DNA of 64,000 nucleotides, from NCBI GenBank assembly GCA_003999685.1, contig CP021222.1, positions 1,674,001 to 1,738,000 of the forward strand, in the 5' to 3' direction. This stretch comes from Taiwanofungus camphoratus (Eukaryota; Basidiomycota; Agaricomycetes; Polyporales; Taiwanofungaceae). Below, one piece after another: positions 8,201-58,027 of the stretch. How positions within the stretch are numbered: the stretch's first letter is position 1; the number at the start of each line of letters is the position of its first letter. Position numbers and translations under genes: made by a program. The notes under the pieces are model-generated. The model had not been told where the DNA came from. It worked only from the letters and a program-made list of their open reading frames with translations, and ran no database searches.

Positions 8201-9853
8201 ATGGATGATATTGGCATTGAAATCCAAAAACAGGTATGTCACTTACATAGTTTGTTTTTTATCCATGATTTTCTCATTGCATATGCCAGGAACCGACCTT
8301 CGAGCATGTTGTGACGGAAAAGGCGGCTCTCTTTCAAGAACTGCAGGAGGAAGACTTGTACATCAAGTACAAGAAACTGGCGCGGCACCTCGAGATGCTC
8401 GACATCCAGGAGAGCTACATTAAAGACGAGCAGGCGAACCTCAAGCGCGAGCTCATCCGTGCGCAGGAAGAAGTAAAGCGCATTCAGTCCGTGCCGCTGG
8501 TCATCGGCCAATTTCTCGAACCTATCGACCAACAGACCGGTATTGTGGGTTCAACGACAGGTTCCAACTACGTCGTCCGCATCCTTTCCACGCTTGACCG
8601 CGAGCTCCTCAAACCTTCGTCGTCTGTCGCCCTTCACCGACATTCCAATGCGCTCGTAGACATCCTCCCGCCCGAGGCGGACTCCTCCATATCCATGCTA
8701 GGAAAGGACGAGAAGCCGGACGTCACATATCAAGACGTCGGTGGGATGGATTTGCAGAAGCAAGAGATACGGGAGGCCGTCGAGCTTCCTTTGACCCACT
8801 TTGACTTGTACAAGAAGATTGGTATCGACCCACCCAGAGGTGTCTTACTGTATGGCCCGCCAGGTATGCGAATTGCGCTCTGCTCGCGCGCAAGTGTTTA
8901 TGGATTCATTATTTCAGGTACCGGTAAGACTATGCTTGTGAAAGCTGTCGCCCACCACACCACTGCGTCTTTTATTCGCGTGGTTGGTAGTGAATTTGTG
9001 CAGAAATACCTCGGTGAGGGTCCTCGCATGGTCCGTGACGTTTTCCGTCTGGCACGAGAAAACGCGCCCGCCATTATATTCATCGACGAAATTGATGCCA
9101 TTGCGACAAAGCGATTCGACGCGCAGACGGGAGCGGATCGCGAGGTGCAACGAATTCTGCTTGAATTGCTCAATCAGATGGATGGTTTCGACCAGGGTAG
9201 CAACGTGAAGGTCAGCACGAGCCCTTGTCATGTTCCATCCGGCTGTTGTGAAGTTGTCCGCCTGCTCAGGTTATCATGGCGACAAACCGAGCAGATACGC
9301 TAGACCCGGCTCTGCTCCGTCCTGGACGTCTCGACCGAAAGATTGAGTTCCCACTACCTTCACGACGAGAGAAACGTCTCATTTTCCAGACGATCACGAG
9401 TAAGATGAACCTTGGCCCAGATGTGGACCTAGAGGATTGTATGTTGCAACCAAGAACCTCTGCCATGATGATGGCACTTATCACCACTGTAGATGTCTCT
9501 CGACCAGAACGAATATCATCCGCTGAAATTGCGGCGATTGTGCAAGGCGCTGGACTGCAGGGTAAGCTGTATGCTGTTTTGCCACTGATGAGGCTGGAAT
9601 GCTCATGATTATTTCTTCAATGTCCAGCTGTACGAAAGAACCGATATGTTGTGGTACCGGGAGACTTCGAGGAGTCGTGGAAAGTGAGTTGTTTGGATGT
9701 GTTTGGATGTTGTACGCGTCGGCTATAAATTCTGACCTTTTCTTCCCTATGACCAGCAAAACGTCAAACGTGTGGACGAAACGCTCGACTTCTGTATGCC
9801 TTTCCCTCTTCCCCTTCCGACTGATTTGCTCACTGTTCTTCTCAGATCGGTGA
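8201..9853 (+). CDS. RPT3: 26S proteasome regulatory ATPase subunit Rpt3 (PSMC4)
   Basis: One of six AAA+ ATPases in the base of the 19S particle; it unfolds substrates and opens the 20S gate. Eight exons (8201-8233, 8290-8863, 8918-9210, 9270-9438, 9493-9561, 9628-9683, 9757-9793, 9846-9853) give 412 residues. It begins MDDIGIE, matching MEEIGI of the animal ortholog. Then come an N-terminal coiled coil ([13 protein letters not shown]), the OB part ([19 protein letters not shown]), Walker A GPPGTGKT split by intron 2, Walker [10 protein letters not shown], and the second region of homology [20 protein letters not shown]. The last codons, in a tiny 8-nt exon, give FYR: the HbYX motif that docks into the 20S alpha ring. 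Confidence 0.97.
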
Positions 9854-15842: not shown

Positions 15843-17370
15843 AGTGACAATGCTTAGCCCACTAAGTACTGATCGAAATCCATCACGGCAGACATAGGGC
15901 AATTGACGAGGGTCAGATAGTCTTAGCATACTTATTTAAATATGCTCAATGTGTAGATCAGTCTGGAAGGCTCATAAATCCCTTCGAAAGTTAGGCCAAT
16001 CAGAGCACGAGATTGGAATATGTAAGGCAAATTTGGCAACCCTCACAAATTCTTTGACATACTGACCATATTTCAATCAACATTTTACGGCTCTTTTACC
16101 CTCACCGATTGGGCCATGTCTGCCGTGTATGGCTCCATTAGCTCCGACAACACGTCAAGATTACCTTTCCTTGCAACGCTCGCATATTCATTTGAAGGAT
16201 TGAAATTCATCTGCTACTGTACCAAGTCGTCTACTACCATTGGCAGTTTCAGCGAAGGATTGTTATTCGAAGGTCCTCGTCAGTAGTTATATAGTCATTA
16301 CCTGATCTCATATAACGACCACTGCTACCCGCTAAAAATTGCGTTCCAAGAGCAATACTATGCGTACTGGTAGAGTCCACGCACTCCCTCAGCCGGCACT
16401 TAGGGTCTCGACTAAGAAAGTTTTCGGTATTTGCGAAAGCCATCAAAAAAGACGAGCTTTTGACCAATCAGAAGCAATTGCCAACTGAATCAGGCTGCCG
16501 ACTCCACCAGTAGGCATAGTAGACCTGGTCCTATGGACTTTTTGGCCACTGAGTTGCTCCAACGGGAACTCTGCTCATTGAATTTATTCTTCAAGAGTTC
16601 GCTTAGGCTGCTGTATCGTATGATCTACCTTACTTGTTCCACATGAACACTATCAAATGTTTAAATAACGACTCGTACCTGCTTATCTCACTGTGGTTGG
16701 ATCTCGACTTTCAACTGTGCTCTCACACTCTCCCGATGCCCGTGACTACTTTTTGAGACAGCATTGGCCAATTCTCCAGATGCACCTTCAAGTAGACATG
16801 TTATTAAGTCCTTTGCTGTAAGCTGACTCACCAACGCTCGCGACCAAATCTCACATTGACACCCTTTAACAATACAGGAAATGAAATCAAGAAATCACTG
16901 TGCTGGTCAATTCCCTGCACGGCAGTGAACACTGCAAAAACATAAGCTCCCTCCATCAGCATCCTATGCTCCTCTTCTTCACTCGTACGTCCTCATTATT
17001 CAGAATGCATATTCAAGGCGATTTAGGCAGGACTACACGCGAAACGTGAATGTGCACCCCTGCTGTTTGCACTTCTCGCATGAACTTGCATCAATGTGTT
17101 ATACATGAACCTTACTCCATAAAACTGATATCAAGTCAAATGGTGTTGAGATACCATTTCAGGGAAGGAGACAAATATATCCAAGTTGACACCGAACTTC
17201 GGACAAGGAGGATGCTGCGCACAATCATGGAATATGGATAGACACGTGAAAGTATAGCTGAGACAGAGGTAGCAATACAGGCACTATTCGCCATATGCTA
17301 GCGACCATCTTCAGGATGCGGTATATCGCCTACGCTCGCGGTGTAGACACTAGAGTGTAAGAGTGTATTT

Positions 17371-17455
17371 GCAGAGACCTAGGTCACGCCCAAAAAGAAA
17401 ATTTTCTTACGTTTCTGTCACCTGATTGGCCGATAACCGAGACCTAGGTCTCTGC
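17371..17455. repeat. 15 bp perfect inverted repeat with a nested palindrome
   Basis: GCAGAGACCTAGGTC at 17371-17385 is repeated as its exact reverse complement at 17441-17455. The 55 bp loop contains the 14 bp palindrome AAGAAAATTTTCTT (17396-17409). It lies 175 bp upstream of the Red1-like start codon. It may be a regulatory hairpin, dyad binding sites or a tiny MITE; the sequence alone cannot decide. Confidence 0.55.
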
Positions 17456-17628
17456 AAAACTGAAAGCTCAGCATAGATCAAGATAACGCGATCGAGATCG
17501 ATCTATGTCCGTATATGGTTAAACATATGTAAGCAGACGTCAGGTACTTATGTGCCAGTGGTAACACTGGCCTCCCAGTTTGTCTCTGATCTATTCGTCT
17601 CATTGCCCCGCTTTACAGATCAGATTAA

Positions 17629-20600
17629 ATGTCGAAATTTGATACTGAAGTTTCCTCTTTGAAGAAAGTGATATCGAGGTATAAAGGCAAGGGGAAGAAG
17701 AGTTATTCGGAAACCGTTGAACAAGTCTCATCGCATCTTATCTTAATTGTGAGTCTTGCCGCTGCACCTTCTGTTTTAATCTTGAAACTTACGGAAAATT
17801 CCATTTTCAGAACTCTTCAGTTATCTCTTCACAAGCGTCGCAAAAGCTTGTCAGGTGCCTTCGTCAACCGCTTGTTTCACTCTACGCAACCTTTCCTCTC
17901 GTGTCTCTGCAGTTTTCAGCGTCGATATTCTATAAAATATATCATGAAAAAGTTCTGACTGCATTCGGAAAACATCTTGTGGAGCAGAAAATATTATGGG
18001 AACTGGTTTTGAACTCTCTCCTCTCGGGTGTTCTGGTATGTCACCGTTCTGTCCCGTCTTGCCCGATTGCCAACTCCTTTGTCAGGACTATCTCGATGAA
18101 AACAACACCGGTACGTTCGTGACGTTCATATATGCGAAGCATGTAGAGTTTACATCTTCTCATGCATGCCTTAGACAAAAATAAACAAACGGTCGCAGAC
18201 GTGCTTTATCCTGCACTCTGTGATATCTGTTTCTCCCTCACGGCACCAATGATGAGTGTAGACCTCAGGTACACGGTGTGTATTGGTTTAATCATTAGAA
18301 TCGGATCCCTATATGCATGTTTTCTTCCCATATATGCATAATTCCTTCGCTATAAGGTGGTCTGCTGACTTGTTCTCTGCGTCTCCAAGGCCTACACTCT
18401 TCTTTCCGACTCCGCAGTCGCGCATATAGCCAATCAGCAAAAGCTGCGTCAAGAGAATATTCTAGGCGGGTAAGTGTATGGGTACCAATTAACTCGACTA
18501 CTCACTCATCGTCGGTAGTGAACGACTTGGGGCTCTCATATGGCGCACGAAAGGTGATTACCTTTTGTTTCTGATATCTTAAAGAGTTGACATACATCCT
18601 GTTGCATCTTATCTTAGACTTTCTTGTCTTGGAGGCCCTCCTCAATCTATTTGCTCGTATTTTGCCATCCACAAAAAACTCGGTTTCGGGCAGAGCTAAA
18701 CGCACCGCATTCATCCAATCAGTCTTCATGTCCTCCCCGCCTCCAGAATCTGCGAGTGCTGGCCATCAGGTGGCGGATCTTCTCGAGCACATTGCCGTAT
18801 CTGAGTGGGAAGAAATGGCTTCGAAGATCATTGCGATCATGGCAGAGTCTAATATTTCTTTGTACGTTCCTCACGCATGCATATTCTCCGATGAACCACG
18901 AGAATGTCATGCTCATCTTGCCGTATCTTCTACCGTAGCCCGCAGCCGTTCGTGGTGAATGAGGTCATTGCTTGTGGTCAACGAAAGCCGTCAGATAGGT
19001 TGTACATAGACAGTAAAGCAATCGTTGTGAACATATTGATAGGGGTAAGTCCGCGCATTTCTAAGACTAAATTCCAGCGAGGGGATTCTAGCTGACTACA
19101 TTCCTATCTCACAATGGCCCACCCTGACCTGTTAACTCTAGAATGATCAATGTGAATCATTAGATGTCTTGTATACTACTATTCGCAGGATAGAGATCAT
19201 GCCCCAGCACTCAAGGGAAGACAATAGCGTCTCCGAGATCATACTCCACCTAACGATACCGCCTGTCCTTGGGAAGGAAACCGTCGTGGAAGAGCCTTGC
19301 AGCTCCAAATACGAATCTCCCAGAGTCATTTTCGGTATTAAGAAGGACAATATGTCACATTTCATCGGCTCACTTCAAAACAGGGGTCTAGTGAGTTTCA
19401 GCACGCATATATTTCAACGAAATTCTGTATATACTGAATTTGTGTTATGTTTGTATTACGAATTTCGTGGCTTTAGAAATACTACCTGAAAGAAGTCGCC
19501 CTTGCAAAGCTCTCTATTGCCCAGTTGCCGACTACGCTAAACTTCGACAGCAAAGGCAATCCAATCAAGGAATTGAGTCAAGACGAGGTCGGTCATTTAG
19601 AAACATCGTCATGCTTTACCGTTCCTAGTATATGCTGACCCAGCATCCTTTGATCCATACTGCTTTACAGAGAATCGAGAACTTGACGCAATGTAAGCTT
19701 ACAGACTTGCGTCTACTTCTACTGGAGTCGTGTCTATCGCATCATTCCTGACTATGTCCTGATATAATTATCACACAGTTTATCATACAAATCAAAGCAG
19801 TGATGACCCGCCCCAGGCTCCCGTTCTCGAAAACGCAGAACCTGGAACGCCAATGCAATCTGCGGTTGTCACAAGTGGAAATGATCCCCAGAAAGATCAC
19901 ACCAGTTCAAGATCCAACAATGCTATCGTCCAAATGCGGCGTAAGGCTCTCGCGAACTCACAACATGATTCCTGTCTTATTTTCCCGCCTGTCGACATAG
20001 CTACTGGTTCCGATCGCAGTTCAGCCTACACACGTCCTGTCTCAATTGGAGGGCCTCGACCTCTAGGCACTACTTTCCTACCTAAGAATCGAACAAGTCA
20101 GAACTTACGCGATGCTGTCTTTGGCACGAGCGATGAAGAATTGTCCGAAATTTCCGACCCTGAATTCCCTCCTCTCACATCAGCAGAACTCAAGCCGTCT
20201 TTTGATACTAAGATGAAGGTCTCTAACATGGCAAAGGTGTCTCATGCTAGAGCACCAGCGACCAAGACTGTGGCTGTCAGACGAATTTATGATTCCGATG
20301 ACGACATTCCTTCCCCCAGACGGACTCCCTTAGCTAACGGTGATAGAGTGAAGGACACCAAAGCCAAGAAGATGGTTCGTAATGTCTCTAATAGCTCGGA
20401 TTACGAACTGGGTAACGACGTCGGAAATCCCATCTCTGGTCATAAAGATACATCTCTGGCTCCTGTGACACCTACAAAGGAATCTAGAGAGAAGGCCGGG
20501 GATACTTACGTCTATGCCAATGAGAAGACCACAAGCCGTGTTTGCTCCCCTCTCAATGTCACGAACAAGGAAGTCTGTTCTATTCCGGCCAGCGTTGTCG

Positions 20601-23282
20601 AAGATGAACCTGCGGTCCCAATCAAAGCTTTGACTGAAAAATCTGTTTCTTTGCCTAAAGCTATTGACACCCAAAATACTGGTACTCGCTTCACGCTGTC
20701 CTCCGATCCGCACAAGAACATCTGCGATCACGATACTGCTAGTTCTGGTCTTGTTGCTGGTCTACAATCTGTGTCTGCACCCTTGAAACCTTCGAGCGTA
20801 AGGGAACGCGAGATGATTGCGGCGTCTATACGTCATCCGAAACGAATGGACGACACTTATACTGCTGATGGCAAACATCAGACCAATACTAAGGACGGTG
20901 AATATTCGTGTTTCGACTATTTCTCGTATTGTCTAACCTCGGAGTAGTCCACTACAGTTCGTCGCCTGTAACCGCAGTCAAGAATAAGCATAAGTCAGTC
21001 AAAGCCAATTTGCGGAAGAAGGACTGCACTGCTCCTGATGACCTCAAAAAAGCATCTCACGTCTCCGCATCGAAGAGAAAGCGATTATTAGTCAAGCAGA
21101 GCAAGGAAGATTTAGATATACTTGCAGATCCTGATATAGAATATCGGCATAGCAAACGGCCTCGTAGGACCACCGCCAATCATAATCCCGAGCCAGCAAT
21201 TCCTTCGGAAAGGACAGAATCTCAAGTTCTGAGACCGCGAGCAACGGCGGCAACACGTGCCACGAAGAAATATCGCGGCAAGAAAGAACAGCCGTCGTCA
21301 CTCGCCGATATCGTCTCCAAAAAGATCGATTATGACGAATTGCCCACCAGTTCACCCAGAACGGGAACTCGAAACGGTTTATTACCTTCCCATGAAGCAC
21401 GAACGCGGGTTCGAAGATTTATAGAAGCTAGCACGACACCAACTGCTCCGGAGATAGGCGGCACTGCATTGATGATTAAGGCAGAACCACAAATCAAAGT
21501 CGACACAAAGGACTCGCCCAAGTTGTTGGCCATAACAGTGGCGGAACGTAATGACGGCGATGCCTATAGTAAACAAGCCTCTGATTTATTCAACGTATAC
21601 TGCGCGCTTTTAGATTTAACTCCCTCTGCTATATACTCACAAGATTTGGATATACAGACAGCAAATGTCAGCGACGTAAAATCGACCCAGTCAATGAAAG
21701 CAGTCGCTACGGAGCCATCTCAAAACGGCTCAAAGAAGGTGAGATGCGTTGCAAGACGGACCTTACGGAACACTCATCGACTTTTAAGCCGCCAAGGGAA
21801 TATTCATCGAAGCCTTCTAGCTTGAAAAAGCCCCATTGTGCCCCTCTCACAAATATTCATATTCCCCAATTATTGCAGAGGAAATCCATCAATCATATCC
21901 AGGCTTTTGAGGAAGATATGGCGGAAAGCCCCACGGAAGTCATTCCAGTTAGAAAGCGCCATCCGCAAGATGCTGATAAACTTTCGCTGTTGAACGAACC
22001 TCGTGTTCATCATGGCCCTATTTCGGACGATGATGATCTTACTCGAGTGGAAGACGTGATCACTGAAACGATCACAACGGTCCACGATACATTGGTTAGT
22101 TGCTTGGTTTGTTTCTGACATGACCAAGTGGTGTATAGCTGATTTTCGCAGGATGAGGGATTACTCAAGAAACATCGACTGCCTCAAACACCATTATTGG
22201 AGACGGTCGGTATCAGACCTTGGCGGCACGAGCGAATTGCTGATAGTCTTTCCCTGTTTCAGAATGCCGCAGTTGTATCGAAAGCAGCAGTTTCAGCCAA
22301 TAACACCGTTATTGAGACCATTGACCTTACCCAAGATGATTCACCGATAAAATCGAAGGCATCACTTATACTCACCAGCCCGTCCTCTCCTGTCCGCGAC
22401 ATCACTTGCAATACAGTTAACTCAATGTCCCCTCTTTCATCCTCTACCCCTCTCCGCAAATCTGCCATTCGAGGTGACCGCCTATCGTCTCACTTATCTG
22501 CTGTTCCATCTTCTCGTCATTCAGTCACTTTCGCACCGACTGTGAACGAACGAGAATTATCACCCCTCGTTTCTTATCTTAACGTCTCCATCCCAAATGC
22601 GGAGGGTGAATTTTTGACCAAAGACACGACGTTGTATGGTATGTGGTCGGCGGTGTCAGTGAGCAAAATATCTCCTCAATTTATCTCGCAGGGTCCTCTT
22701 CGATTTTCAAGGGAAGTGGGAATCAAAGACACGAGATCAAGTCTAAGATCGGTCAGAGGGCCAAGCGCAGTCCAGCAAGTAAGCCTCCTGTTATGCAAGA
22801 CATTGTTGACGTCCTAGAGCAAATCCATCAAGTAACTGCATTTTCATGAGTGGCGAAATGATCACCCGCGAGCGTACTAAAACATCTAATCTAGGCTATA
22901 TTCCTAAAAATCTCATCGAAATTTGAAGGGGTGCGAGACGACATCCGCACCGGTCGCGATGCGCTCCTTGCTGAAGCAACTGCAGATCTATCGCAGATGC
23001 GTGCTGAAAGGTCTTTTCTATGACTTCTTGCAGCAGATAGATCCACTCATTTTGAACAGCGTAACCCAATTCAACCAGCTTATCGATCTTGAAGCAGAGT
23101 ACGCCAAAAGTGGACGGGCGGTTGCAAACGGACTCGAGGACGCTCTGAAAGTGAACCAATACTTGTGCGGTGAATTGACAAAGATTATCGAAGGGCATGA
23201 CCGCCACACAATGTCAAAGAAGATGCCCGCCTGCATTGCCCCTCCTGTCCCTCCTATGTACAGCTCTCGTGATGGAAGATGA
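17629..23282 (+). CDS. Putative meiotic chromosome-axis protein, Red1/SYCP2-like
   Basis: Eighteen exons, all in phase, encode about 1,497 residues. Exon starts: 17629, 17811, 18086, 18175, 18390, 18519, 18618, 18939, 19142, 19477, 19671, 19779, 20948, 21789, 22152, 22692, 22895, 22986. Residues 1-310 are helical and repeat-like (LVRCLRQPLVSLY, LVLEALLNLFARIL, VADLLEHIAV). About 313-430 is a beta-rich unit (RRIEIMPQHS, SEIILHLTIPPVLG, SPRVIFGIKKDNMSHFIGSL). A very long Ser/Lys/Asp-rich disordered part follows, with a SUMO-interaction-like IDLTQDD near 1235. The end is a predicted coiled coil (DIVDVLEQIHQ, QQIDPLILNSVTQFNQLIDL). ARM-like plus PH-like N-terminus, disorder and C-terminal coil is the layout of SYCP2 and Red1. 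Homology is inferred from architecture, not from a recognised signature. The last intron (22931-22985) is open in frame upstream and could be partly coding. Confidence 0.6.
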
Positions 23283-24003: not shown

Positions 24004-24927
24004 ATGAACGAAGAGACGAAAAAAACCACATACCATTCTGCGCCCTACATGGCCGCGGGGTCAGCTATGATGACCTTTAAGCCCATCAACGCTATCCACC
24101 AGCATCTATGTGCATTCCACGTCTACTCGTGAGTTTCATGGTCTAACTCGTGAACTTGTACCAACCCTTGGTCTAGACAAGATCGAACTGGGCACCTCGA
24201 GGCCCACCATTATTGCACTCACCTCTCGCATGATTTCCACCAGTGCATTATCTATGACTCTGATGAGCCGACCGCTAAGCTGATCGGGATTGAGGACATA
24301 GTCTCGGAGAAGGCTTGAGAGTCTCGATCGATGGAACACTGCGCAAAGATTTGGCAATTTCATGTCTTCGCAGGTCTTCGATTCCCTGCCTGTCGAAGAG
24401 AAGAAGTTCTGGCACTCGCACAAATATGAGTCAAAGTGCGCGCCAGAATACGCAAAGTGCGCCGTAATGCTCAAGTCTTGCTTGGCCAGGTCGAAAGTGG
24501 CTTCCTACAGATGCAAACGAAGAGCCTTGTGCCGGGTACGGCTTGCATCCCGCAGCCGATACGTGATACTGACCGCATACCAGGATCCGTAGCGGACGCA
24601 GCGGAACAGCCCGTCATCCTTGAGATTCACAAGACATACGGCAAGACGATCCATACCTGGCCCGTCGACACGTGTCCAAACCTCCCACTTGGCCCGCCGA
24701 ACCTCATGATATCGTATACGGACGATGGCCAGGGTCCTCCACCAGAGATGGTGAATCTGCGTGACCAGCGGTGCGGCATGGATACGGCGGCGAAGAGGCA
24801 GTTGAGAGCGGGATATCTTCCTCCGTACGAGAAAAGGGCAGACACGGATCAGTGGGAGGAAACGGGCAAGGCACTTGTGTTCGAGGTAAAAGAAGTGGAT
24901 TACAAGCCATATCCCGGCACGGTCTGA
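24004..24927 (+). CDS. DUF1264 / oil-body-associated protein (OBAP) family
   Basis: Family proteins are found in plants (lipid-droplet associated) and in fungi and bacteria with no settled function. Four exons (24004-24128, 24177-24312, 24374-24430, 24490-24927) give 251 residues, the usual size. Conserved blocks: PINAIHQHLCAFHVYS, GHLEAHHYCTHL, HQCIIYDSD, AKLIGIEDIVSEK, LPVEEKKFWHSHKYE, then YGKTIHTWPVDTCPNLPLGP and LMISYTDDGQ. The MNEETKK start was chosen as the nearest ATG to the conserved part; an in-frame ATG at 23947 exists. Intron 2 begins GC (AAG|GCTTGA). The junction after WHSHKYE does not fit GT-AG: the in-frame join (GAG to GTC) would need an intron beginning TC, while the nearest GT-AG pair shifts frame by one. 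Either an unusual intron or a one-base change. Confidence 0.82.
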
Positions 24928-25072: not shown

Positions 25073-28000
25073 ATGAAGACGGCCATGATGTCGGCCATGT
25101 CCGCAACAGACGTCGCCCGCCCCCTCCGCGCCCTCCTCGAGTCTGCGCCCGACGCCCCTCCCCTCCCCTCCCTCCTTGCGATCGCCGACTCCGTCGTCTC
25201 CGTTCTTCGCACCTCCTCCGCACCAGGGCCTCTTCTGCTATCCCTCGAGGATGAACTGCAGGCCGTGTACGACGATGTCATCAACCATGCCGTGCCCGCG
25301 CAGGGTGAGATCTTTCTCGCCGTGCTGCACCGCCTGCGCCCGGTGTTCCCGCCCGCGTCGCTGATCGAGACGTGGTTTGATCTCGTGTTACGTCCTGCGC
25401 TGCGCGAACCGAGGCTCGCGGCACCGGCCGCGGACCAGGCGAAGGAGCTCATCCTCGCGGCACTTGATCCAGATAATGGCATTCCTGCTGGATTGCTCTC
25501 TGGCGCGGAAATGGGGGCAGAGGTACCCGAGGAAGAGCGCGACAAACAGAGAGACAAGGTAGGCAGGTTCAGACGGAGGCTGATGGAATTATATCTGTTG
25601 GATGCGTTCAATGAGAGCTCGGGTGACGATGTGCTCGAGTGGGCTAAGCTGGACTCAAGCCAGCGCGAGAAGAAAGCGTTCTGGAAGGCGAACCTTGAGG
25701 ACGTGCTGGTCAGGCTTGGGCTCGAGCGACCACAGGTGGGTATCGTGGCATTTACTATACTATCCAGTCTATAATCCAAGCATATTTATTGTGCGTGAAG
25801 GACTTCTTGACCGAGGTTTACCACTGCTTTGTGTCTCCCTCTTCCCGCCTACAGCTCCTGGTTCTCCTTAACACCTATACCTCGCAGCCGACCTTCCCCG
25901 ACTACGCCCCCGCGCTAGCGGCGCACACACTCACGACCAGCCTACTGCATTCCCTCCTTTTCGACGGCTCGTCCACCGTCGCGGTCATCGCGCTGTCCGT
26001 AGTCACGAAGCTGCTACCCATCTTCGCAGTCCGGGCGAGCGCATACTTGAAGCGCCTGCTGCCGCTGCTCCTCGCAATCCTTGCGCGCATCATCTGCTGG
26101 CGCGAACGTGAATTGAGCACGCCTCCTTCTGAGCGAGATCCTGATGTCGAAGATGATGCCGCCGCCGAAGAAGACAAGAAGAGGTTAACCGAGAGCGTGT
26201 ATGCTCCGCCAACCCGGGATGACATAGAGTGGGAACGGCTCGAGCAGGCGTTTCATGGGGCCACGTCCTCAACACCGTCTGCACACAGATATTTCACCTT
26301 TCTGTACTATTTGTTCCCATGCAACGTCATACGTTTCCTGCGCTTACCAGTGCAGTACCTAAAGGACAACGGCCTAGATAGCCCATACACTATCGACTGG
26401 GACGATGTACTGGATGAGGACAAAATCAGAAGCAAGAGCGAGGTACGCCATCTGATTCGCGATTCTCGAACTGGGAGGCTGATGCTTAACACATACATGT
26501 AGGTACTGCTGCGCGGGCACGTTCTTCACCCGCTCTTGATATGGCGTAACCCGACTGAGGAGTTGTCCGAGCCTGATTTCTGGTCCCAATACGATATTGC
26601 GCGGATTGTGGGCGATTGCTCGATGCTGGACGTGCGCAACGCTTCGCTCATCGCCCGCCAGCGCCCCTGCCCAGACACTTCCGACGACGCCGATATCATT
26701 GCACAATACCCTGTGGCGCCTGTACCCGCGACTTCCTTGCCGCCCGGTCATGAAACACCTGCCGCGCGCGAGCTCGCGTCGCCGACGATTCAGCCCGCCT
26801 CGCCACACTCTGAAAAACCACGTGTCTCGCTGCAGGACATGATCGCAGCGTCGGTCGCGCTCAAGTCTGGGCTTGACGTTGAGGTCGTCCCGCCGTCCTC
26901 CGCGTGGTCCGCGGCGCTCTTCCTGCAGCCGCGCACCCGCTCCCCGTCACGTTCGGAAATGGGCGATGCCGAGCCCGCGGCGTCCCCGTCCTCGGAGCGC
27001 GCTTCTAAAGGCAAAGACAGGGAAGAGGAGACGGACGTGGAATCGATGCGACCCGTGTCGGAGCGCTCGCGCGTGCAGGTGGGCGAGCAGGAGGACGTGC
27101 CCTCGCATGTCGCGCAGGCGCTCTCGGGGCTCCAGCGCGAGGTGCTGCTGTTGCGCAACGAGCTTAACTTCGAACTGTGGAACGCGAGAGAGAACGTGCG
27201 GCATATTGGGCGGCTGTACCAGGACCGCGTGCTGTCGAAGACAGCCGAGATCGAGCGGCAGGCACTGGTGCGTTTCCTTCCCTTCGTGATATCTGGGCAT
27301 TGTTCTCCTTGTAAATGTGAGAGAAAAAAGCTGACGGACTCTGCGCGATAGCACAACAAGTTGCGGGAGTACAAGCAGGAGGTACTCCGCCTGCAGCGCG
27401 AGCTGAAGAATCACAAGGCACACGCGTCGGCAGTGAAAACTCAGTATGCAGACTGGAACCAGAAGCTGCAGGATACGCTGAAGGATTTCAGGCGCAAGAA
27501 GGCTGCCTGGGAAGAAGAGGCTGCAGCAATGCGACTTGCAGACAAGGAGGCCAAGGTGCGTGATTCGTCTACAGTATCGTCGCCTAGCAGCATATTCTGA
27601 AGGTGTTGTAGGCCACGTTTGAGGCGCGGGAAAAATTGCTTGCACAGGCAGTGCAGAAGGTGTTCCAGCTAGAGACGAAGATCAAGGAGAACGCACACAA
27701 GGTCGACAGGTTGCACGACTACGAGCAGCAAATAGACCAGTTGATCAAGCTACAGCGACTGTGGTGGGCGTTTGTCTGTTTCTACTGCTATAGGCAAAAT
27801 CTGATCGCCAGCTTGCGTTGACACAGGGAGCTTGATGTGCAGAAGCTGAACGAGCAGGCGGAGTACTTGCAGGTATTCACGAGCAAGTACCGCAAGATGG
27901 AGTTGAGACTCGAGACTTACGAGAAGACGCAAGTTGAGATGGAGCAGGATGTACAGTAAGTTTCATTCAGAGTTTCCCCCACGAGCCTTGTTTCCGATAC

Positions 28001-28642: not shown

Positions 28643-31042
28643 ATGGCAACAGAGAGCTTCGGGTTCCAGGCTGAGATTAGCCAGCTCCTGGACTTGATCA
28701 TCAGTGAGTCCGATTGACTCGTCGCGCGTCGATCCCGAGTCTCATTCTCTTTTTCAATCCTTCATAGACACCTTTTACTCGAACAAGGAGATCTTCCTTC
28801 GTGAGCTCATCTCCAACGGCTCCGATGCCCTCGACAAAATTCGCTATGCGTCCCTCACCGACCCCTCCGTGCTCGAGACCGGCAAGGAGCTCTTCATTCG
28901 CATCGTCCCCGACAAGGAGAACAAAATCCTCTCCCTCCGTGACACGGGTATCGGTATGACCAAGGCTGACATGGTCAACAACCTCGGTACCATCGCCAAG
29001 TCCGGCACAAAGGTAGGAAGCAAATTTAGGTGATGTGGCGCAGTCGCAGAAAAGCTGATCATCACATTATCCAGGGCTTCATGGAGGCGCTGAGCTCCGG
29101 TGCCGATATTTCCATGATTGGCCAGTTTGGTGTCGGTTTCTACTCCGCTTACCTCGTCGCCGAGCGTGTCCAGGTCATCTCAAAACACAACGATGATGAG
29201 CAGTACATCTGGGAGTCCGCAGCCGGTGGCACCTTTACGATCACCCCCGACACCGTTAATCCTTCTCTCGGCCGTGGTACCGAGATCCGCCTTTTCCTCA
29301 AGGAGGACCAGCTCGAGTACCTCGAGGAGAAGAAGATCAAGGATATCGTCAAGAAGCACTCCGAATTTATTTCGTACCCCATTCAGTTGGCGGTGACGAA
29401 GGAGGTCGAGAAGGCAAGTGGAACACTCCCGTGATCAAGCATTACGTGGATACTGACCACATTCGATATTCAGGAGGTCGAGGATGACGAGGAAGTCAAG
29501 GATGAAGAAGAGGAAGGCGAGAAGCCCAAAATCGAGGAGGTTGATGACGAGGAAAAGCCTAAGAAGACGAAGAAGATCAAGGAGAAGGAGGTTCAGAATG
29601 AAGAGCTGAACAAGACGAAGCCCATCTGGACGCGCAACCCTCAGGACATCACCACTGAGGAGTATGCTGCTTTCTACAAGAGCTTGACCAACGACTGGGA
29701 GGAGCACCTGGCTGTCAAGCACTTCTCCGTCGAGGGTCAACTCGAGTTCAAGGCCATCCTCTTCGTTCCTAAGCGGTAAGCATACTCGTGGCGTTGCAAT
29801 ACTTAAGTTTCTGATCGTCTTTTGTAGTGCGCCCTTCGATCTCTTCGAGACCAAGAAGAAGCGCAACAACATTAAGCTCTACGTTCGCCGGGTGTTCATC
29901 ATGGACGACTGCGAGGACCTTATCCCTGAGTATCTCAACTTTGTGAAGGGTATTGTCGACTCGGAGGACCTTCCGCTCAACATCTCGCGTGAGACGCTGC
30001 AGCAGAACAAGATCCTCAAGGTCATCCGCAAGAACATCGTGAAGAAGTGCATGGACCTCTTCAGCGAGATCGCGGAGGACAAGGACAACTTCAGCAAATT
30101 CTACGAGGCGTTCGGCAAGAACATCAAGCTAGGTATCCACGAGGATGCCCAGAACCGCAGCAAGCTTGCTGAGTTCCTGCGCTTCTACTCGACCAAGTCG
30201 ACCGAGGAGCAGACCTCGCTCAAGGGTACGTGCTAATTATCGCCGTCGCCTAAGTTTCTGTGTTGACTGTTGATCGTTTTCCAGACTACATTACTCGTAT
30301 GCCTGAGGTCCAGAAGAACATCTACTACCTCACCGGCGAGTCGCTCTCGTCCGTCAAGGACTCACCGTTCCTTGAGGTGCTCAAGAAGAAGGGCTTCGAG
30401 GTACTCCTGCTTGTCGACCCCATCGACGAGTACGCCATCACGCAGCTGAAGGAGTTCGATGGCAAGAAGCTCATCTGTGTCTCGAAGGAGGGCCTCGAGC
30501 TCGAGGAAACCGAGGAGGAGAAGAAGGAGCGCGAGGAGGAGGCGAAGCAGTTTGAGGACCTCTGCAAGGCAGTCAAGGACGCGCTCGGGGACAAGGTCGA
30601 GAAGGTCGTCGTCTCGAACCGCATCAGCGATTCGCCGTGCGTGCTCGTCACGGGCCAGTTCGGCTGGTCATCGAACATGGAGCGTATCATGAAGGCGCAA
30701 GCGCTGCGCGACTCGTCGATGTCCTCGTACATGGCGTCGAAGAAGACGCTCGAGCTCAACCCGCACAACCCGATCGTTAAGGAGTTGAAGAAGAAGGTCG
30801 CCGAGGACAAGGCGGACAAGTCAGTCCGCGACCTCACGTATCTCCTCTTCGAGACCGCGCTCCTCACCTCTGGCTTCTCATTGGACGATCCCACGTCGTT
30901 TGCGAAGCGTATCCACCGCATGATCTCTCTCGGTCTTGACGTCGACGAGGAGGAGTCTGCACCCGCGGCGTCTCGCAGCAGTGATGATGCTCCCCCTCCA
31001 TTGGAGGGTTCGTCTACATCGGCGATGGAGGAGATTGACTAG
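28643..31042 (+). CDS. HSP90: Cytosolic heat-shock protein 90
   Basis: ATP-dependent cytosolic chaperone for kinases, steroid-receptor-like clients and others. Six exons (28643-28703, 28768-29012, 29075-29413, 29474-29775, 29828-30225, 30285-31042) give 700 residues. N-terminal GHKL ATPase: [36 protein letters not shown]-type helix, [34 protein letters not shown] Glu/Lys-rich linker ([14 protein letters not shown]) joins the middle domain ([38 protein letters not shown]) to the dimerising C-terminal domain. The C-terminus is MEEID instead of the near-universal MEEVD, the TPR co-chaperone docking motif. Intron 3 (29414-29473) has a textbook GC donor (AAG|GCAAGT). Confidence 0.98.
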
Positions 31043-40300: not shown

Positions 40301-43300
40301 TGCAGAAATAGAAGACTGGCAACAATACGTACCCAACCGGGCATTAGACCGAGACCTCCAAGACGACTACCGACACCTAAAGCACCCTTCCTTCCGAATT
40401 CAACAGCTACTAAACCAAACGGTTCGTCACGAGACGGGATAAGGGCGAAATCAGCACCACTGAATAGATAAGGTGGGAGGGCGGTGAATTCTGGCTTGGA
40501 ATAAACACGATCGGGGTACAACTCCATAAGTCGCGCCAGTTTCTCTGCGGCAAACCGCCCGTACAAATCAATGACTGGGCCGACACAAATAAGTTGGATC
40601 GAAGGGCGCTTCTCAAGTCTAAAAAATGTTGGGTCATCGGGAAAAGATCAATGCCTAGACGAACTTACAAGGACGGCATGACATCCGCAATAAGATCAAC
40701 ACCTTTCTGCTTTGACCAACGGCCGACGAATACGAACAGGTCGGCATCGGGATCTTGCTTGATACCAGCCCATTCTTGAGCCTGACGCTTGTGCTCTGGC
40801 CGCTGAGCTTCGGCTGCCTCATCAATCTGTATGTCCCGAACAGACACAGGATTCTCATCCAGCGCTGCAATATCCGTAGGGTCGGGATTCGGCAAAGAAT
40901 CGACATGCTTGAGGGTCCACAGCGCGGGATATCGTGCCCAACTGCGTTTGCCATACTTATCAGAGACACCGGCGACGCCAATACTTTTTTGGTGAGTGCT
41001 GATGAACGAGGCAGCCGCATGGAGTAGATTAAACGTGTTTCCAAATTGAACATACTTCGTACAATGCTCCTTGCTGATGTTAAAGGCTGAACAAACCTCT
41101 TTCATTTCCTCTTTCGTACGGAGCGGCCAGAGACCCTGAAATTCGGCATTGTGGAGAGACAAACAGACAGGCAGGACCTTGGGCAACAGGTAAATCGGAG
41201 CAAGGGCACCATGGTAATCATTAACGTGGTAGATGTCAATATCAGGGTGTCTGCGGACTGTAGCAGCGATGGCTTGATTCCAAGTAGAGTAAAAGATCGC
41301 GGAGCTTAAGTCATCCATGCGAGCTGGGTACGGATCCGCTTTAGTCTGTGCACGGAACACTGGACTGTCGAGAAGAACATAGGTGATGTTGTCCAAGACG
41401 TGTGTCTCGACTTCAATAAGGTATGGCTCGCCGAAAATGATGACTTCAACGGGCTCAGCTGGATCGCCAGCAGGATACTCTAGATCCTTGACCTTCGGGC
41501 ACACCCAAATAAGATCGACATCGGTCATAGCTTTCCCCATGAGACTGGACATGACACCCAAACCACCAATCTTCACTTTCAGCTTCCAATCGATAATCTC
41601 GTATTCCAATGTGGCAATGAGAACTTTGCGACGCTTGTTCTTGTCTTCAGGCCAACCAATGATTTCAGAATTATGCTTGTGCCCAAACATCTTCTCCGCC
41701 AAAGGCGTATGCGGCTCCTGAAGGTCGGACTTCGACTTGTTTCCCAAGCTACCAATGATAGGGAAGTAGTTACTGTGGTCCTTCTTAGGCTTCACACCCC
41801 ACTGGTTATATTTGATACCGTAGAACGACCACATGAAAATGACCACGGCCAATGAAGCAGTGATGAAGGGGATGGTGAGGAGTAGAGCAAAACAGATAGC
41901 TCCAACGGCGGACTCGCCCACGGGCTGCAAGTACCACTGCATGGTAGAGTCATCGACGATTAAGTTCCAGGCAAGATGAGGGTGCGGGGGAGCAGACAAG
42001 TTCAGGTAGTTGGGCGAGAGCGTATTTGGTGGAAGCCGGTCCATAACACCATCGCCGTCAACATCTCCATAATAGTAGTTGTCGAAACCAAAGACATTGA
42101 GCTGAACGTAGGAAGGCCATGTGGCCATGATCTCGAGCTGCCAACGGCCTTGATCATCTTGGCTCATCTGATAAGGAAGACCTTTGTCGTAACCCCACTG
42201 ATTGAACGGGCCGCGAACGAGGAATTGAGGGACACGTCGGGGAGTGCTATACCCATGATCAGAGTGTACAACGTAACTGGACGACTGGATTGCATAACTC
42301 CAATCTATGGCGGACGTTAAATCAGGTTCACAAGGCTAGACGTTGCGACAAACTTACATTGAACCATCAAATGTTGTCCTTTCCAAAAATTCTCGGAGTT
42401 GTCAAAGAGGTTCGCATCCATTGTTGTCGTGTCCTCCCAGTTCTGCCATTGGGTCCAGTTTTGGCCAAAATTCCACGACCATCGGAACATGTCTGCACCA
42501 TAGGCCTTATGCGTATACGTGTACTTCCCATCGCTGGACTGGAGACCACCATTATCATAATCGGAATCTGGAAAGACGATGACATTCGTGGAAGAACCCT
42601 TGCGGACCAACAAACGGTCTGTGCTCTAGAATTCACGAACATCAGCTGAGCGTTAGTGATGAAAGACGCGGTACTCACTCCCGTTGACGCAGTACCGTCA
42701 TTCGTTGTCGGATTTTTCGCTATAATCGTTAAGATGCCATCGGGAACATTCTGGAGAGTCGCCGACCATGACCACACAGAAGTTGAGACCCCGGAGACCT
42801 GAATTGGCTCAGTGCCGGTCACCGCTGCACACTTGATTGATGACTGGTCGATCGTCGGTGTCGTTCCATTGCCAGAAGAAGACATATTCAGAGTCAGGGA
42901 GTTCGTTACGCTGTCGCAGCTCATTTCGACGTTGAACTCGAGCGAGATGTCCAAAACGGTCGCGTTAGTTTGGCCGGCCTCTGCAGTGATACGTGCATCG
43001 TGCCCAGGCGAGAATCTCGTCAGCGCCGGTGGGGGTGCAACCCATTCATTGACCGGAACGAGGGCCTTGAAGCCGAAGGGTGGCATCGTGACATTGTTCA
43101 AACAGCCGTACCAAGGAGCCTTGCTGTCATTGTAAAACGAAGAGCCAGAGTCCTGGAGGGTGTATTCCTCATATGGTGCCAACAAGTTCCTGACCGTGGT
43201 TCCAGACTGGTAAGGCGAAGAAATCCACAATTCACTCATGCAATCATAGCTCCAGCTCTGAGTTGAATTCTCGTTCGAGTAGAGCATCCAAACTTGATCA

Positions 43301-45524: not shown

Positions 45525-47815
45525 GACGGAGAAGAGACGGATCGGCGTGCGCGGTGAGTGGTTGGGAAGGTGATGATGGTAGTAGGAGTGCGTAGGATGA
45601 GGGTAATCGTGGTAAATCGACCTGTTAAGGGAGAGGGGGGGAACGAACGAACGAAAGGAAGGGGCGCTGTACCCTCGCGAGATGATGGGAGGCAAGCGGG
45701 CTGGAGGGGAAAGTTGGACACGAAGCCGGCAGGCGCTGAAAGGAGGTAAGAAATTCGTCGCGGCCTCGTTTTATTTGGGCGTTTCACGCGCCGGGGTCGA
45801 GACGCCGATCGGCACTGCCAACTGCCCCTTCCAAGAGTTTCTTGCGCATTTATTCGTTACTGACTACTTACCGCCCCACGTCCAGCACGTCTCCTCTCCC
45901 CGACAGCAAGACGCTGTCGCCCAGCACTTTGATAGATTGACACCACTTTCTTCGTACGCTACGCCAGCCAACAAGGAATATACTAACACCGCCTTGTCCA
46001 CATGCCGCCCGGGGACGCCTTACCAATCTCCTGAGCGTAAGTCGGCATCACAAGCGAAACAGCGCGTGTGATTACTCGTTCAAGTATCTAGACGACCTCC
46101 CAAAGCCGCAGGATAGTCGGCGCGGCCCCTGATCGGATCGGCTAGCAGGCCAGCAAGCAGCACCATTGGCTAGGAATCAGCGAGACGCCCCTCGAGAAGC
46201 TCAGAATTGTTGTGCGCTCTGGCCTCTGGGCCTCCAAGGTGGACTCGACACTGCGATAAGGTGGGCAAAAATCACTCGATCGTGATCAGTGTCGGGCTCA
46301 CTTTGAGCTGCCAGTACAGAGCTGCAAGACCAAATGCTACATTGGCCATTCTCGAGCACGTACAGACTGACTTGACTGGTCACTCAACGGCGACCTGTGG
46401 CCTGCCGAGCTAGCTCCTGCAGTCACATGCTCATCATGTCAGATCTGGTTGATGAGATATTTCAAGAAAACATTCGTGGTAATATCCTCTGCACTCCGAA
46501 GAGTTTTGCCGAGAGGCCGAAACACCGCACCATGACACCAAGGTCCAACGTCAATCCGACAGACGACAAGACCCAAGGGAGTACAGTGAGGTGAGCTAGA
46601 CTTTCCTCCTTTCACCTCAAAGACCCCTGTGGTGGAGAAACCGTGGTCCGAGATCTATCCGACAAGTCACTGGGCGAGGAATGTATCTGCGTCAGTTGCC
46701 AAAGTGACGTATAGCTCACCTTGCTGCTGTGCACCCCATCTTGGATTTGCAGGACCGGTAGGTTCGGTACAAATTTCTCGGTCGCTCATAGTTCCATAGT
46801 CCTCTCGAAAGGCCATGGGACTACCTGTCACTTGAAGGAACCTTCACCGTTCCTTTCGCCCCTTATCCCAAACGGTCGCGAACAGTAGTTGAAATATCAT
46901 AAGCATCCTCGAGCAGTCTGGCTGTTCCTTCTTGAGGGTACCGCGTTATCCCCGCCCGATGATATTAGATTCAGAGCGGCCACAAGGATTCCTTATCAAA
47001 CCCATCAGACCCTTTATAAGTCCTTCTAGCATGGGATAGAATGAGAGACATAATATTCTCTATCACTGATGGAAGCAGAAGAGTACAGGTGGTAACTATG
47101 GTATCGTAAGGATACAAAGGCCGACTCGTCTTGGATGACGGACGGTCTGACGAGATTGACAGCGCGCGCCGTCTTACTGGCGAAGTCATAGACTGTCTCA
47201 TGGTCCGGGGATGTTGTGAGCTGTCCCACATTGGGCCCTAGCACGGGTGACAGAAATGAGAGATGGACACCGTATCCGCATGCGCCATAGCAGGCAAATC
47301 GGTGTGAATGACCTGGGAACAGACAAAGCTGCAGCGCTGGTCTAGGATCTACAGCAACGAGCACAGTTCCCCCTCCTCGACACGTTGGTATGGTGTTGCC
47401 AATCAGCGTGTATCGAGCGTTCATCAACGAAGACGGCGCCGACATCGGATATCAAAACATCCAGGATGATAATACCATGTCGCCAGCTGTGAGCCAGGAA
47501 GCGTGACTCTCACGAGCGTTGCTCGACGCGCGCCCACTGCCAGCCATTGTTCTCGACTCTGTACTCTGTACTCTGCCCAAACTCTACCGCCTGTGGCGTA
47601 CACAAAGTCGTCGTTCCCTTGTTCTTTGTTGTGATATGGATTTCAACTATCTATGATCCAGACACCCCGCCCACACTCAGACTTTGCGCACGTTTTCAAG
47701 GTAACTACGCGACCAGCCAGACGAACACCGCCTTGGGTGACGAACTGCAGCAATCCTCACGCGTATTCGTAGTGCGAGAAGCCCCCAGGACTATCTGGCA
47801 CATTGTACTTCTATA
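45525..47815. other. 2.3 kb divergent intergenic region
   Basis: Separates glucan synthase (-) from the MAPKKK (+) and should hold both promoters, which can be long for wall and mating-pathway genes. The 200 bp before the glucan synthase start is pyrimidine-rich on the coding strand. A 139-codon minus-strand ORF at 47026-47445 and smaller ones are unsupported. No repeat or RNA gene recognised. Confidence 0.4.
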
Positions 47816-50800
47816 ATGACAGCCACAGTCGCGGGCAGCAGTTCCCTGCAAGTGCTTGACGATTCCCCACAACCGGCCTCGCAGGCCTCTTCTCCTACTT
47901 CGCCCACGTACCCTTCGCACACCCACTCTTCGTCCTCGCGTGCTGCCAACCACCTCAATGGCACCGCCCCCTCCACAAACGTACCTCATTTCGGCGCTTC
48001 GACATTTGCACACAGCGTCTCGCTCGAGCTTCCGCCTGGAATGTCGTATGCAGAGTTCCTCCGCACCTGGACAGACGCACACGTCGCGCGCTGGCTCTCC
48101 GACATCAAGTGCGGCCAGCACGCCGTGACGTTCAAAGCGAACGACATCCGCGGGGACGTGCTTCTCGAGCTGGACCAGGTCACGCTTAAGGAGATGGGCA
48201 TGGCTAGCGTCGGAGACAGGCTCCGCATCGTGAACGGCGTCAAGTCTCTCCGGCAAAGGTGCTCCTCTGGCACCGCCGCGTTTGCATCGATCATGAACCG
48301 CCCACGCATCGCCGACCATGGCCGTACTCCGAGCATGAACGGGGACATCGGAGGGTATCACACGCGGACTGGCTCGCGCCGGCTCGAGAGCGGTCGTCCA
48401 GCGCCCTTGCACTTGACGCCAGCCGGGGGCTCCCCAGACCTCCCTCGAATCATCCGCGACGGCCAGGATTCGGCGAGGCACAACAATATCCGGCCTCTTC
48501 CACAGCCAAGCAGTGGATCGACGCACAGCACTCCGACCACTGCTCACAGCCGTACAAACCTTCCGCCCCTTCCGCCCCCACCACGGGGCCAGCCGCCCTT
48601 GCCGCCTGTGGCACCAAATGCGCGAACCCTCCATCCACCACTTAATGCCCTGTCGGGACGGCGCACGCCTATCCAGCCCGAGTCGAATTTGTTCCCCCCA
48701 CAGCAGCCTCATGCATCGAATCTGTTGACTCCCACGTCTCAGTCTCAGGGACGGACACCGGGTCGCTCACAGTCGCCACTACCATTCCCAACTTCGCAGC
48801 CCGCTAGCCGTAATCTCACCCGCTCAAATAACGATAATGGTTCACACAGCAGGAACGGCTCACATTCAAATTCGGCGCCGCCACAGCCGCCTAGCAAGCC
48901 TGTCCCGCGTCTGCCCACAGGTAATCCCCCTCACCCGTATGCGTCGCATACGTCGCCGCAGCATGGTCTTTCGCCGATCGCGGAATCGTTCGTGACCCAG
49001 CGCAGTAATGCGGGGACGCCCTCGCCCCCTACTGGGCTCTCGCACAGGCTTGCCGCTGGTCTCTTGCGCCCGGACACGCCTCCGCGCAATAATCCCTCCC
49101 TGGACGACCTGCGCAGGAAGCTTGTGAGGTTCGCTCTGCCAGACGAGGGCAAGTCCACCACCATCAACGTTGCTGATTGTGTGGGTGGCGTCGAGGTTCT
49201 TGTGAAGGCGCTAAAGAAGTTCGGAAAACTTGGCTCGAGGGGCGACTCCGAGGGCATGGAACATGTTGAGAGCGAGGATGGCGGATTGAGCGTTGACGGA
49301 TGGGGCGCTTACCTGCACTACGGGCACGAGGATTCACCAGGTTGTTTTGTTCTTCCATTATACTAAAATTGACTCATCTGAATCTGTATGACAGGAAATC
49401 CTCTGACGGAGGCGCAACTTCTTGCTATCTGTCATGCCCCGCCAGATGAGCCCTCTCGCGAGCACGGGCTGACACTACGCATGATCGGAAAGACGAAGCG
49501 GTCAGTGAGGGAGGCAACCCCGAGCCCATCAAGTCCTGTATTTGCGACGCCAAGCCATGATCAAGACGAAGACTCGCTCTCGCCAGAAAGGCTTCCCAAT
49601 ACGCTGCAAACTCCTGCAACTACAAAGAGTATGAAGCGCGCCAGTTCCGTTAGCATCCTTAGTGGGCTCGGTGTGCCCATGCCCGAAAATGCTCTCGAAG
49701 GAGCGGCGGTCACTTCTCCTGCCGAAAGTCCCAAGGAGAGCATTCCCTCTGCTACCAGGCGGCCATCAAAGCTGCGTAACTTCTTCGGACAGAGGCCGCC
49801 CAGCGAGCTTATCACTACTCACCTGGCGGAGTACTTCCCGTTCACTGAGAAGAAAGTACTGGAGCGTACTAGAAGGCAGAGCATGATGCGTGCTGCAGGC
49901 GGGCTCGACAGGCGAGATAGCACCATTTCATGGAACCCCTCATCGCAGTCAAGATTCAGCGTTAGTACACTAGATTCACAACGGAATGCATCGCCAAGGG
50001 TTTCTGTATCGTCGGCGTCGACCGTCTTGTTCCCTGAGAAACCCTCCCCTCTACCACCTCTCCCTACTGATACTAGCAAGCCAGAGCAGCCTCCTCGACT
50101 GTCGCTGTCTACCGATAATGGCAACGCTATCGAGCTGTCTACGAAGGAGGAAGATCAAGCTTATAAGCGACTATCCAGTCCCCATATCCTGCCGCCCGTG
50201 GCGTTCCCGTCAGAGTCCCTGTCTGAATCGTTGAATCTCAACTCAAGTCAGTTGGGTGCGCGCCCCCTTTCCAGAACGATGTCGACTGCTTCGAAAAGGA
50301 TGAGTTTCATCACTGAGTTGAGGAGTAAGCGGGACCGGTCTGACACTGCGAGTCTGATGACAGTCGACGAGATCACCGCAGAAGTGGAAAGCCGCCGCGA
50401 GAGTGCTGATGTGAAGCTTGATCCAGAAAGTACAGAGGAGTGGACCAAGGTTGACGTAGGAGATGACATTGAGAAGGAGAGTATCAAGGAAGTCGCTGAG
50501 GGTGAGAGTGAGAGTGAGGATAGCGAAGAAGAGGACGACGATAATGCCGCTGATGATGACGCAGTTACTGATGAGGATGAGCCTGGCAAGGCAATCACAT
50601 CAGCAGGTAGTAAGTTGGTCAGTACTTATCAACTGCAGGCTTTGAGGCTAATCTTCCGTTCCTAAGGCGAGAGAACTATCAAGTGGATCAAAGGTGCTTT
50701 GATCGGCGCTGGGTCATTTGGAAAAGTCTACCTTGGGATGGACACAGCGCATGGTTTGCTTATGGCGGTGAAGCAGGTGGAATTACCCACAGGTTCAGCA

Positions 50801-57800: not shown

Positions 57801-58027
57801 CCTATATACCCGCCCCTGAGCCGCGCAAGGTGGAGCATGGAATAGACGGCGATAATAACGGCTAGCGCGAGCCAGAATATGTAGGCATAGACCATGCTCT
57901 CGTCGCTGAGAACATGGATGTCGAGATAAGCTGTGATCCATTCTTGGTCGCTGGAATAAAAAGGAGTGGTGGGATAGGCAGTCAAGGCCGATGTGCTGGT
58001 GGTAGCTGGTGCGTCGAGCGAGTCCAT
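54817..58027 (-). CDS. Ferric reductase (FRE family) with a large insertion in the NADPH domain
   Basis: Plasma-membrane flavocytochrome that reduces Fe3+ or Cu2+ outside using cytosolic NADPH. Four exons (57200-58027, 56084-57140, 55008-56030, 54817-54944) give 1,011 residues, against 600-700 for most FREs. It has an extracellular N-terminus, several membrane helices with heme histidines (LAFIHRWSGRLIWFFTFLHV, HYEAFYFLHVLL), a FAD domain (PGQHFLLRVPAISRFTSHPF, in which HPF is the FAD signature) and an NADPH-binding start (LVAGGSGVSFGLSVLQY). After PPSELQVDIFVTN about 280 residues of Ser/Pro/Asp/Glu-rich disordered sequence intervene (for example SSTDDSDAENDSFVDLSYY). The fold then resumes with RAKGPIIVGCGPTSLNAV and ends IAFVSEDFEY. 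The reading frame is continuous and each junction is in phase, so the insertion is real coding sequence. ATX1 lies directly upstream. Confidence 0.88.

What the first reader, a model, noticed from the sequence alone, without database searches (positions are those of the whole stretch)
17629..23282. Candidate basidiomycete meiotic axis core protein of the Red1/SYCP2 class
The 18-exon reconstruction gives about 1,497 residues with a helical repeat N-terminus, a beta-rich PH-like unit, a very long charged disordered middle and a C-terminal coiled coil. That order and length match SYCP2 (about 1,500 residues) and, more loosely, fungal Red1. These proteins are poorly conserved and usually missed by simple searches, so this could be an undescribed axis protein. 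The match is by architecture only.
Basis: partly seen in the sequence, partly recalled or inferred. Interest (0 to 1): 0.75.

Follow-up and report, generated by a model that had tools for sequence, protein, structure and literature searches.

The report
Mushroom SYCP2-type meiotic axis protein
An unnamed gene in a medicinal mushroom encodes what is very probably the mushroom version of SYCP2/Red1, the protein that forms the backbone of chromosomes in meiosis; its predicted fold matches mammalian SYCP2 and it keeps a short segment like the one that in mammals captures a meiosis regulator.

The parts
17629..23282 (+). Whole gene (AcW1_005724): 21 exons, 20 introns, 1,439-aa protein, ATG to TGA
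   Evidence: Letter-for-letter spliced mapping of P0001; exon list
17629..18850 (+). ARM-like helical repeat domain, residues 1-273
   Evidence: AF2 model of orthologue P0012, helices 2-270; match to SYCP2 5IWZ and to other ARM-type folds
18943..19390 (+). PH-like (Spt16M/SSRP1-like) barrel, residues 279-395
19501..19566 (+). Candidate HORMAD closure motif, residues 404-425 (LAKLSIAQLPTTLNFDSKGNPI)
   Evidence: Conserved block right after the PH domain; its profile ranks the closure-motif region of SYCP2 first in 11 of 18 vertebrate proteins tried
19796..22789 (+). Middle region read as disordered, residues 446-1313, with short conserved motifs
   Evidence: pLDDT under 50 in P0012 433-1108 nearly throughout; composition; motif islands
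20120..20158 (+). Conserved acidic motif FGxSDEELSEISD, residues 534-546, partner unknown
22317..22340 (+). SUMO-interacting-type motif TIDLTQDD, residues 1174-1181
   Evidence: IDLT aligned in 24 of 27 members; that IDLT is a SUMO-interacting type is recalled
22790..23207 (+). C-terminal stretch read as coiled coil, residues 1314-1415
   Evidence: Present in 25 of 27; no proline over 1316-1405 in 23 of those 25; heptad bias in two of three thirds, weak

Best explanation
The gene encodes the Agaricomycete member of the SYCP2/Red1 axis-core family. Inferred working: the ARM-PH domain docks on meiotic chromosomes (cohesin or chromatin). The segment at 404-425 is held in the safety belt of the Hop1 HORMA domain and so places Hop1 on the axis. 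The C-terminal helices associate into oligomers and filaments that line the axis. The long flexible middle, with its SUMO-binding-type motif, tethers recombination and synapsis factors. Shown here: gene structure, conservation, predicted ARM-PH fold of an orthologue, closure-motif-like sequence in the right place, IDLT motif, one copy found by search, and HORMA and kleisin matches (plus a weak Spo11-type match) in the same genome. Inferred: every interaction, filament formation and meiotic timing.
Against: Foldseek's own superposition is loose: rmsd 11.6, TM-score 0.52 by target length, 0.20 by query length. ARM-PH sequence homology alone is not significant: hhalign probability 2.6%, 3 of 100 block-shuffled decoys score as high, though none aligns as many columns. 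No Pfam SYCP2 or Red1 match; NCBIfam, a prokaryotic library, also none. The closure-motif match is weak outside mammals: in six reptile, frog, shark and fish proteins 2 to 56 of 1000 permutations reach it, four of them score below the best shuffled window, and in 7 of 18 proteins (4 fish, 3 that I class as SYCP2L) another window is best. In mice, loss of this motif stops HORMAD2 but not HORMAD1 loading and leaves axes intact (PMC13396342, abstract), so it need not matter for axis building. The Hop1-tail resemblance is not specific. Heptad bias of the coil is weak (33, 40 and 360 of 1000 column shuffles) and the coil was not modelled. The Spo11-type match is just over its cut-off (26.8 against 26 bits, 20 positions). 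No expression or binding data. The folded protein was an orthologue, not the window's own.
Confidence: 0.86

Rival explanations
1. A true SYCP2-type protein by descent, but now working outside the meiotic axis, for instance at centromeres or kinetochores, as the kinetoplastid KKT17/KKT18 and vertebrate SYCP2L do.
For: Tromer 2021 shows the family was recruited to kinetochores in kinetoplastids and cites centromeric SYCP2L (PMC8131943, passages and section 9).
Against: Searches of this genome found only this one copy, so if it had left the axis no recognisable SYCP2-type protein would remain there; it keeps the closure-motif-like segment, which was not the best window in the 3 proteins that I class as SYCP2L; a Hop1-like HORMA gene is present.
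Confidence: 0.08
2. An unrelated chromatin protein that combined an ARM repeat with a FACT-type PH barrel independently, so that the likeness to SYCP2 is convergent.
Against: 5IWZ stands ten Z units above the next entry and aligns 311 residues against at most 224 in any other printed row; the closure-motif match sits at a similar distance from the domain.
Confidence: 0.05
3. The gene is not functional in this species: a relic in a lineage whose meiosis is failing, as conjectured for this mushroom.
For: The genome paper raises the conjecture of defective pairing or synapsis because collected basidiospores may be inviable (PMC8865532, passages).
Against: The reading frame is intact over 21 exons and the conserved N- and C-terminal blocks are kept; selection itself was not measured.
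Confidence: 0.01

Closest known systems
SYCP2 (vertebrates; mouse structure 5IWZ)
   Same: ARM-PH fold over 311 aligned residues; closure-motif segment of similar sequence right after it, clearest in mammals; about 1,500 residues (PMC6349405, passages), C-terminal coil.
   Different: 11% identity in the aligned domain; no Pfam SYCP2 match; no SYCP3-like partner found by single-sequence search, which does not exclude one.
Red1 (yeasts, Sordaria)
   Same: N-terminal domain, closure motif directly after it, disordered linker, C-terminal coil (PMC6349405, passages); SUMO-binding motifs towards the C-terminus (PMC4030836, passages).
   Different: Longer: Red1 is 827 aa in yeast and 839 aa in Sordaria (PMC12758814, passages); Pfam Red1 does not match; no Red1 N-terminus was among the PDB rows printed.
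SYCP2-3 gene family as surveyed by Tromer 2021 (PMC8131943)
   Same: The family defined there by late ARM plus PH plus C-terminal coil; the survey reports members in a wide variety of fungi.
   Different: The searched main text has no word beginning basidio- or agaric- and names only Ustilaginomycotina, as lacking it; supplementary tables could not be read, so a mushroom member may already be listed.
ASY3 (plants)
   Same: Axis-core role with closure motif and coil (PMC6349405, passages).
   Different: Seed-plant ASY3 lacks the ARM-PH domain; this protein has it.

Membership tests
SYCP2-type axis-core protein | N-terminal ARM repeat followed by PH barrel in the SYCP2 arrangement | tested here: met
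SYCP2-type axis-core protein | Significant sequence-profile similarity over late ARM plus PH (criterion of Tromer 2021, E below 0.01) | tested here: inconclusive
   hhalign P 0.018, collinear 147 columns, 3 of 100 decoys as high; no Pfam SYCP2 match
SYCP2-type axis-core protein | Closure-motif-like sequence directly after the ordered N-terminal domain | tested here: met
   Best window in 11 of 18 vertebrate proteins tried; 0 of 1000 permutations in five mammals, 2 to 56 in six others. Sequence only
SYCP2-type axis-core protein | Physical binding of the segment to the HORMA domain | not testable with these tools
   No complex prediction or binding assay available; Hop1-tail resemblance weak
SYCP2-type axis-core protein | C-terminal coiled coil | tested here: inconclusive
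   Present in 25 of 27, 23 of 25 proline-free; heptad bias reached by 360, 33 and 40 of 1000 column shuffles in three thirds; not modelled
SYCP2-type axis-core protein | Oligomer and filament formation | not testable with these tools
   Needs purified protein
SYCP2-type axis-core protein | Meiotic expression and axis localisation | not tested
   No expression data held; supplementary files could not be read
Red1 (Pfam PF07964) | Match to the Pfam Red1 model | tested here: inconclusive
   No match listed at E<=10 for the window's N- and C-terminal pieces or among the 13 families listed at E<=1 for 27 members; genome search empty but rang in no control
Red1 | SUMO-interacting motifs towards the C-terminus | tested here: met
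   One IDLT-type motif aligned in 24 of 27 members; yeast Red1 has two. Sequence only

The most novel reading that the evidence does not exclude
The HORMAD-capturing closure motif of SYCP2 is itself homologous between mushrooms and mammals, so Hop1 recruitment by a SYCP2-type protein dates from before the fungus-animal split; and Agaricomycetes build the axis from this one protein without a SYCP3 partner, combining SYCP2's domain and motif with a Red1-like SUMO hub in one chain.
Probability: 0.45. Interest if true: 0.62.

Novelty: new member of a known kind. Interest (0 to 1): 0.5.

Why it matters
Synaptonemal complexes form in Coprinopsis (Coprinus), a classical mushroom model (PMC4132317, passages; PMC2944786, passages), yet the words Red1, Rec10, SYCP2 and SYCP3 do not occur in the main text of its meiotic expression study, nor Red1 or SYCP2 in that of a 2026 study of meiotic entry in Cryptococcus that lists HOP1 (PMC13321354, passages). 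A concrete candidate makes the mushroom axis testable by knockout, tagging and peptide binding. It also gives a lineage in which to ask whether SYCP2's closure motif is ancestral and whether SYCP3 is dispensable. For T. camphoratus, whose meiosis has been conjectured to fail (PMC8865532, passages), it shows that this axis gene's reading frame is intact in the sequenced strain.

Tried and rejected
Exon model of 18 exons with last intron 22931-22985: rejected, since the annotated protein and its relatives support 23011-23059.

Pfam and NCBIfam for a name: nothing relevant. PDB by sequence: nothing relevant for single sequence, full profile or coil profile. Pfam SYCP2_SLD, SYCP2_ARLD and Red1 over the genome: no match, but these models rang in no control genome, so this says nothing. 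Mouse SYCP2 as a single sequence against the family profile: no significant match, P 0.22. Protein search repeated with the 27-member alignment: 26 proteins, no new one; P0023 dropped out. Both of these family searches scored only the 7,987 candidates sharing most words, so the family is wider than 27 for all I know.

SYCP3-type partner: the coil as single sequence found only the gene itself. Not a proof of absence.

Hop1 C-terminal tail as a second closure motif: a 14-column profile from the axis family picks KIKISVGPAVDLGD as best of 5,929 windows in the Hop1 locus, and 3 of 1000 column permutations reach it in the tail. But of 1,243 stretches of the family, seven others match the tail better than the closure-motif stretch at 403, the best at residue 505. 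Left as a weak hint.

Rows and choices: the closure-motif scan used 18 of the 120 proteins listed, out of 316 found. I class 15 as SYCP2 and three (P0072, P0076, P0097) as SYCP2L; this is my sorting, and at least five of the 15 (P0040, P0047, P0048, P0052, P0082) bear the name 'synaptonemal complex protein 2-like' in the listing. In 11 the top window is the closure-motif region; I count P0077, whose window lies at 304, by its sequence. In four fish proteins (P0059, P0064, P0066, P0082) and the three others it is not. The permutation control used only those 11. The vertebrate profile used 33 proteins plus the mouse chain, before a gap filter.

VIA-align list: families not in it are not excluded; ranges give first and last aligned residue only, and few rows cover the PH part.

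Literature on a named basidiomycete Red1/SYCP2: six searches returned 49, 0, 92, 702, 48 and 126 papers, of which 20, 0, 20, 12, 10 and 12 were listed; none of the listed titles and abstract starts names one. Only the held open-access library was searched, and no supplement could be read.
Full report
WHAT IS THERE. The window lies on contig C3 of a 33.2 Mb, 15-contig genome. A protein search with my spliced 1,499-residue model returned 27 proteins, the first being AcW1_005724 of Taiwanofungus camphoratus, 96% identical over 100%, from a contig of 3,365,326 bases, the length of C3. That protein maps letter for letter onto 17629-23282 with 20 introns. So the gene exists and is annotated as a hypothetical protein. 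An 18-exon, 1,497-residue model can be reproduced but differs in four places: three introns of 60, 63 and 57 bases that can also be read through, and the last intron, which belongs at 23011-23059. The latter matters because it restores the stretch VRDDIRTGRDALLAEATADLSQMRAES, conserved in the family.

FAMILY. The 27 proteins (this gene included; only the 7,987 candidates sharing most words were scored) come mostly from Polyporales, the order of T. camphoratus (the orders of the other polypores are recalled), with Leucogyrophana (Boletales), Sanghuangporus (Hymenochaetales) and Crassisporium (Agaricales). Names in the listing read hypothetical, uncharacterized or unnamed. Conservation is highest in residues 81-320 and 1321-1400, with 401-440 close behind, and low in between save for short islands. 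The N-terminus is present in 27 of 27, the C-terminal stretch in 25 of 27.

SEQUENCE TEST OF DESCENT. Mouse SYCP2 alone against the family profile is not significant (P 0.22). A vertebrate profile gives a best local match of 147 columns, 186-355 against 198-362, P 0.018; 3 of 100 block-shuffled and 0 of 60 column-shuffled decoys score as high, none as long. This is suggestive, not proof. Pfam finds no SYCP2 or Red1.

CLOSURE MOTIF. Right after the barrel the family has a conserved block, about PKLSLAxxPAxLExDxxGxPV. A profile from its 22 columns was run over whole vertebrate proteins. In 11 of 18 tried the best window is KQGISVAKTSVHILFDASGSQI or its equivalent, the closure-motif region that West 2019 mapped to SYCP2 395-414 (PMC6349405, passages). 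Scores are 14.7-17.3 bits in five mammals and a frog, 8.2-12.2 in the other five, against 11.7 for the best of 80,066 shuffled windows. Column permutations reach the score 0 of 1000 times in each of the five mammals, and 2 to 56 times in the six others. In the reverse sweep the dog region picks residue 404 among stretches from residue 240 on. The position relative to the folded domain agrees within about three residues. In mice, deletion of this SYCP2 motif stops HORMAD2 loading on axes, but not HORMAD1 loading or axis assembly (PMC13396342, abstract and passages). The motif is not the top window in four fish proteins and in three that I class as SYCP2L.

OTHER FEATURES. IDLT followed by mostly acidic residues is aligned in 24 of 27. 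IDLT is a SUMO-interacting type (recalled). Yeast Red1 carries two SIMs in its C-terminus and binds SUMO chains (PMC4030836, passages). FGxSDEELSEISD at 534-546 and a basic stretch at 881-905 are conserved without a known partner. The 1316-1405 stretch has no proline in 23 of 25 members; heptad bias is weak.

GENOME CONTEXT. The same genome has HORMA matches at two loci; the one on C3 is followed by a PHD-like cysteine cluster and further open frames, as in Hop1 (my reading). It has a TP6A_N (Spo11-type) match just over the cut-off (26.8 against 26 bits) and kleisin N-terminus matches at two loci. Searches with the N-terminus and with the coil found only this gene.

MECHANISM. From these parts I infer: ARM-PH docks on the chromosome, 404-425 captures Hop1 by the safety-belt mode, the coil builds the filament, and the flexible middle with its SUMO-type motif tethers other factors. 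In Sordaria, loss of Red1 removes Hop1 and Spo76/Pds5 from axes (PMC12758814, passages), which is what this model predicts for mushrooms. All steps of function are inference.

NOVELTY. The family is known (West 2019; Tromer 2021). Tromer's figure legend notes co-loss of SYCP2-3 and HOP1 in Ustilaginomycotina (PMC8131943, section 9), which suggests that other basidiomycetes were seen to have it, but a search of the main text found no word beginning basidio- or agaric-, and the tables were out of reach. The Coprinopsis meiotic study discusses hop1; Red1, Rec10, SYCP2 and SYCP3 do not occur in its main text. The listed parts of six searches of the held library showed no paper naming a mushroom axis-core protein. 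So: a new, unnamed member of a known kind, with the shared closure-motif segment as the freshest point.

Noticed in passing
17370-17460: GAGACCTAGGTCTC, a 14-base palindrome, and a near copy about 70 bases away, some 170-260 bases upstream of the start codon (seen by eye).
   Followed up: no
24430-24927 (+): Open frame with a DUF1264 match (Pfam E 1.8e-19), next downstream.
   Followed up: no
25699-26502 (+): Long open frame with only a sub-threshold hamartin (TSC1) match (E 0.98).
   Followed up: no
47741-51644 (+): SAM domain, a sub-cut-off Byr2-type Ras-binding match and a protein kinase match at about 50958-51644 (converted from C3 coordinates): looks like a Ste11/Byr2-type MAPKKK gene (my reading).
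   Followed up: partly
8269-9303 (+), 30254-31042 (+), 40665-42335 (-), 57125-58096 (-): Proteasomal-type AAA ATPase, HSP90, starch-synthase-type catalytic domain and ferric-reductase matches.
   Followed up: no
L011, 1266-3950 (contig C3 about 3.030 Mb): Hop1-like gene with a HORMA match, a PHD-like cysteine cluster and a C-terminal tail KKIKISVGPAVDLGD that weakly resembles the axis protein's closure-motif segment.
   Followed up: partly
residues 1240-1245, 22515-22532: Conserved RHSVTF-type motif; in one relative KVKF fits the PP1-docking RVxF pattern (recalled pattern; alignment).
   Followed up: no
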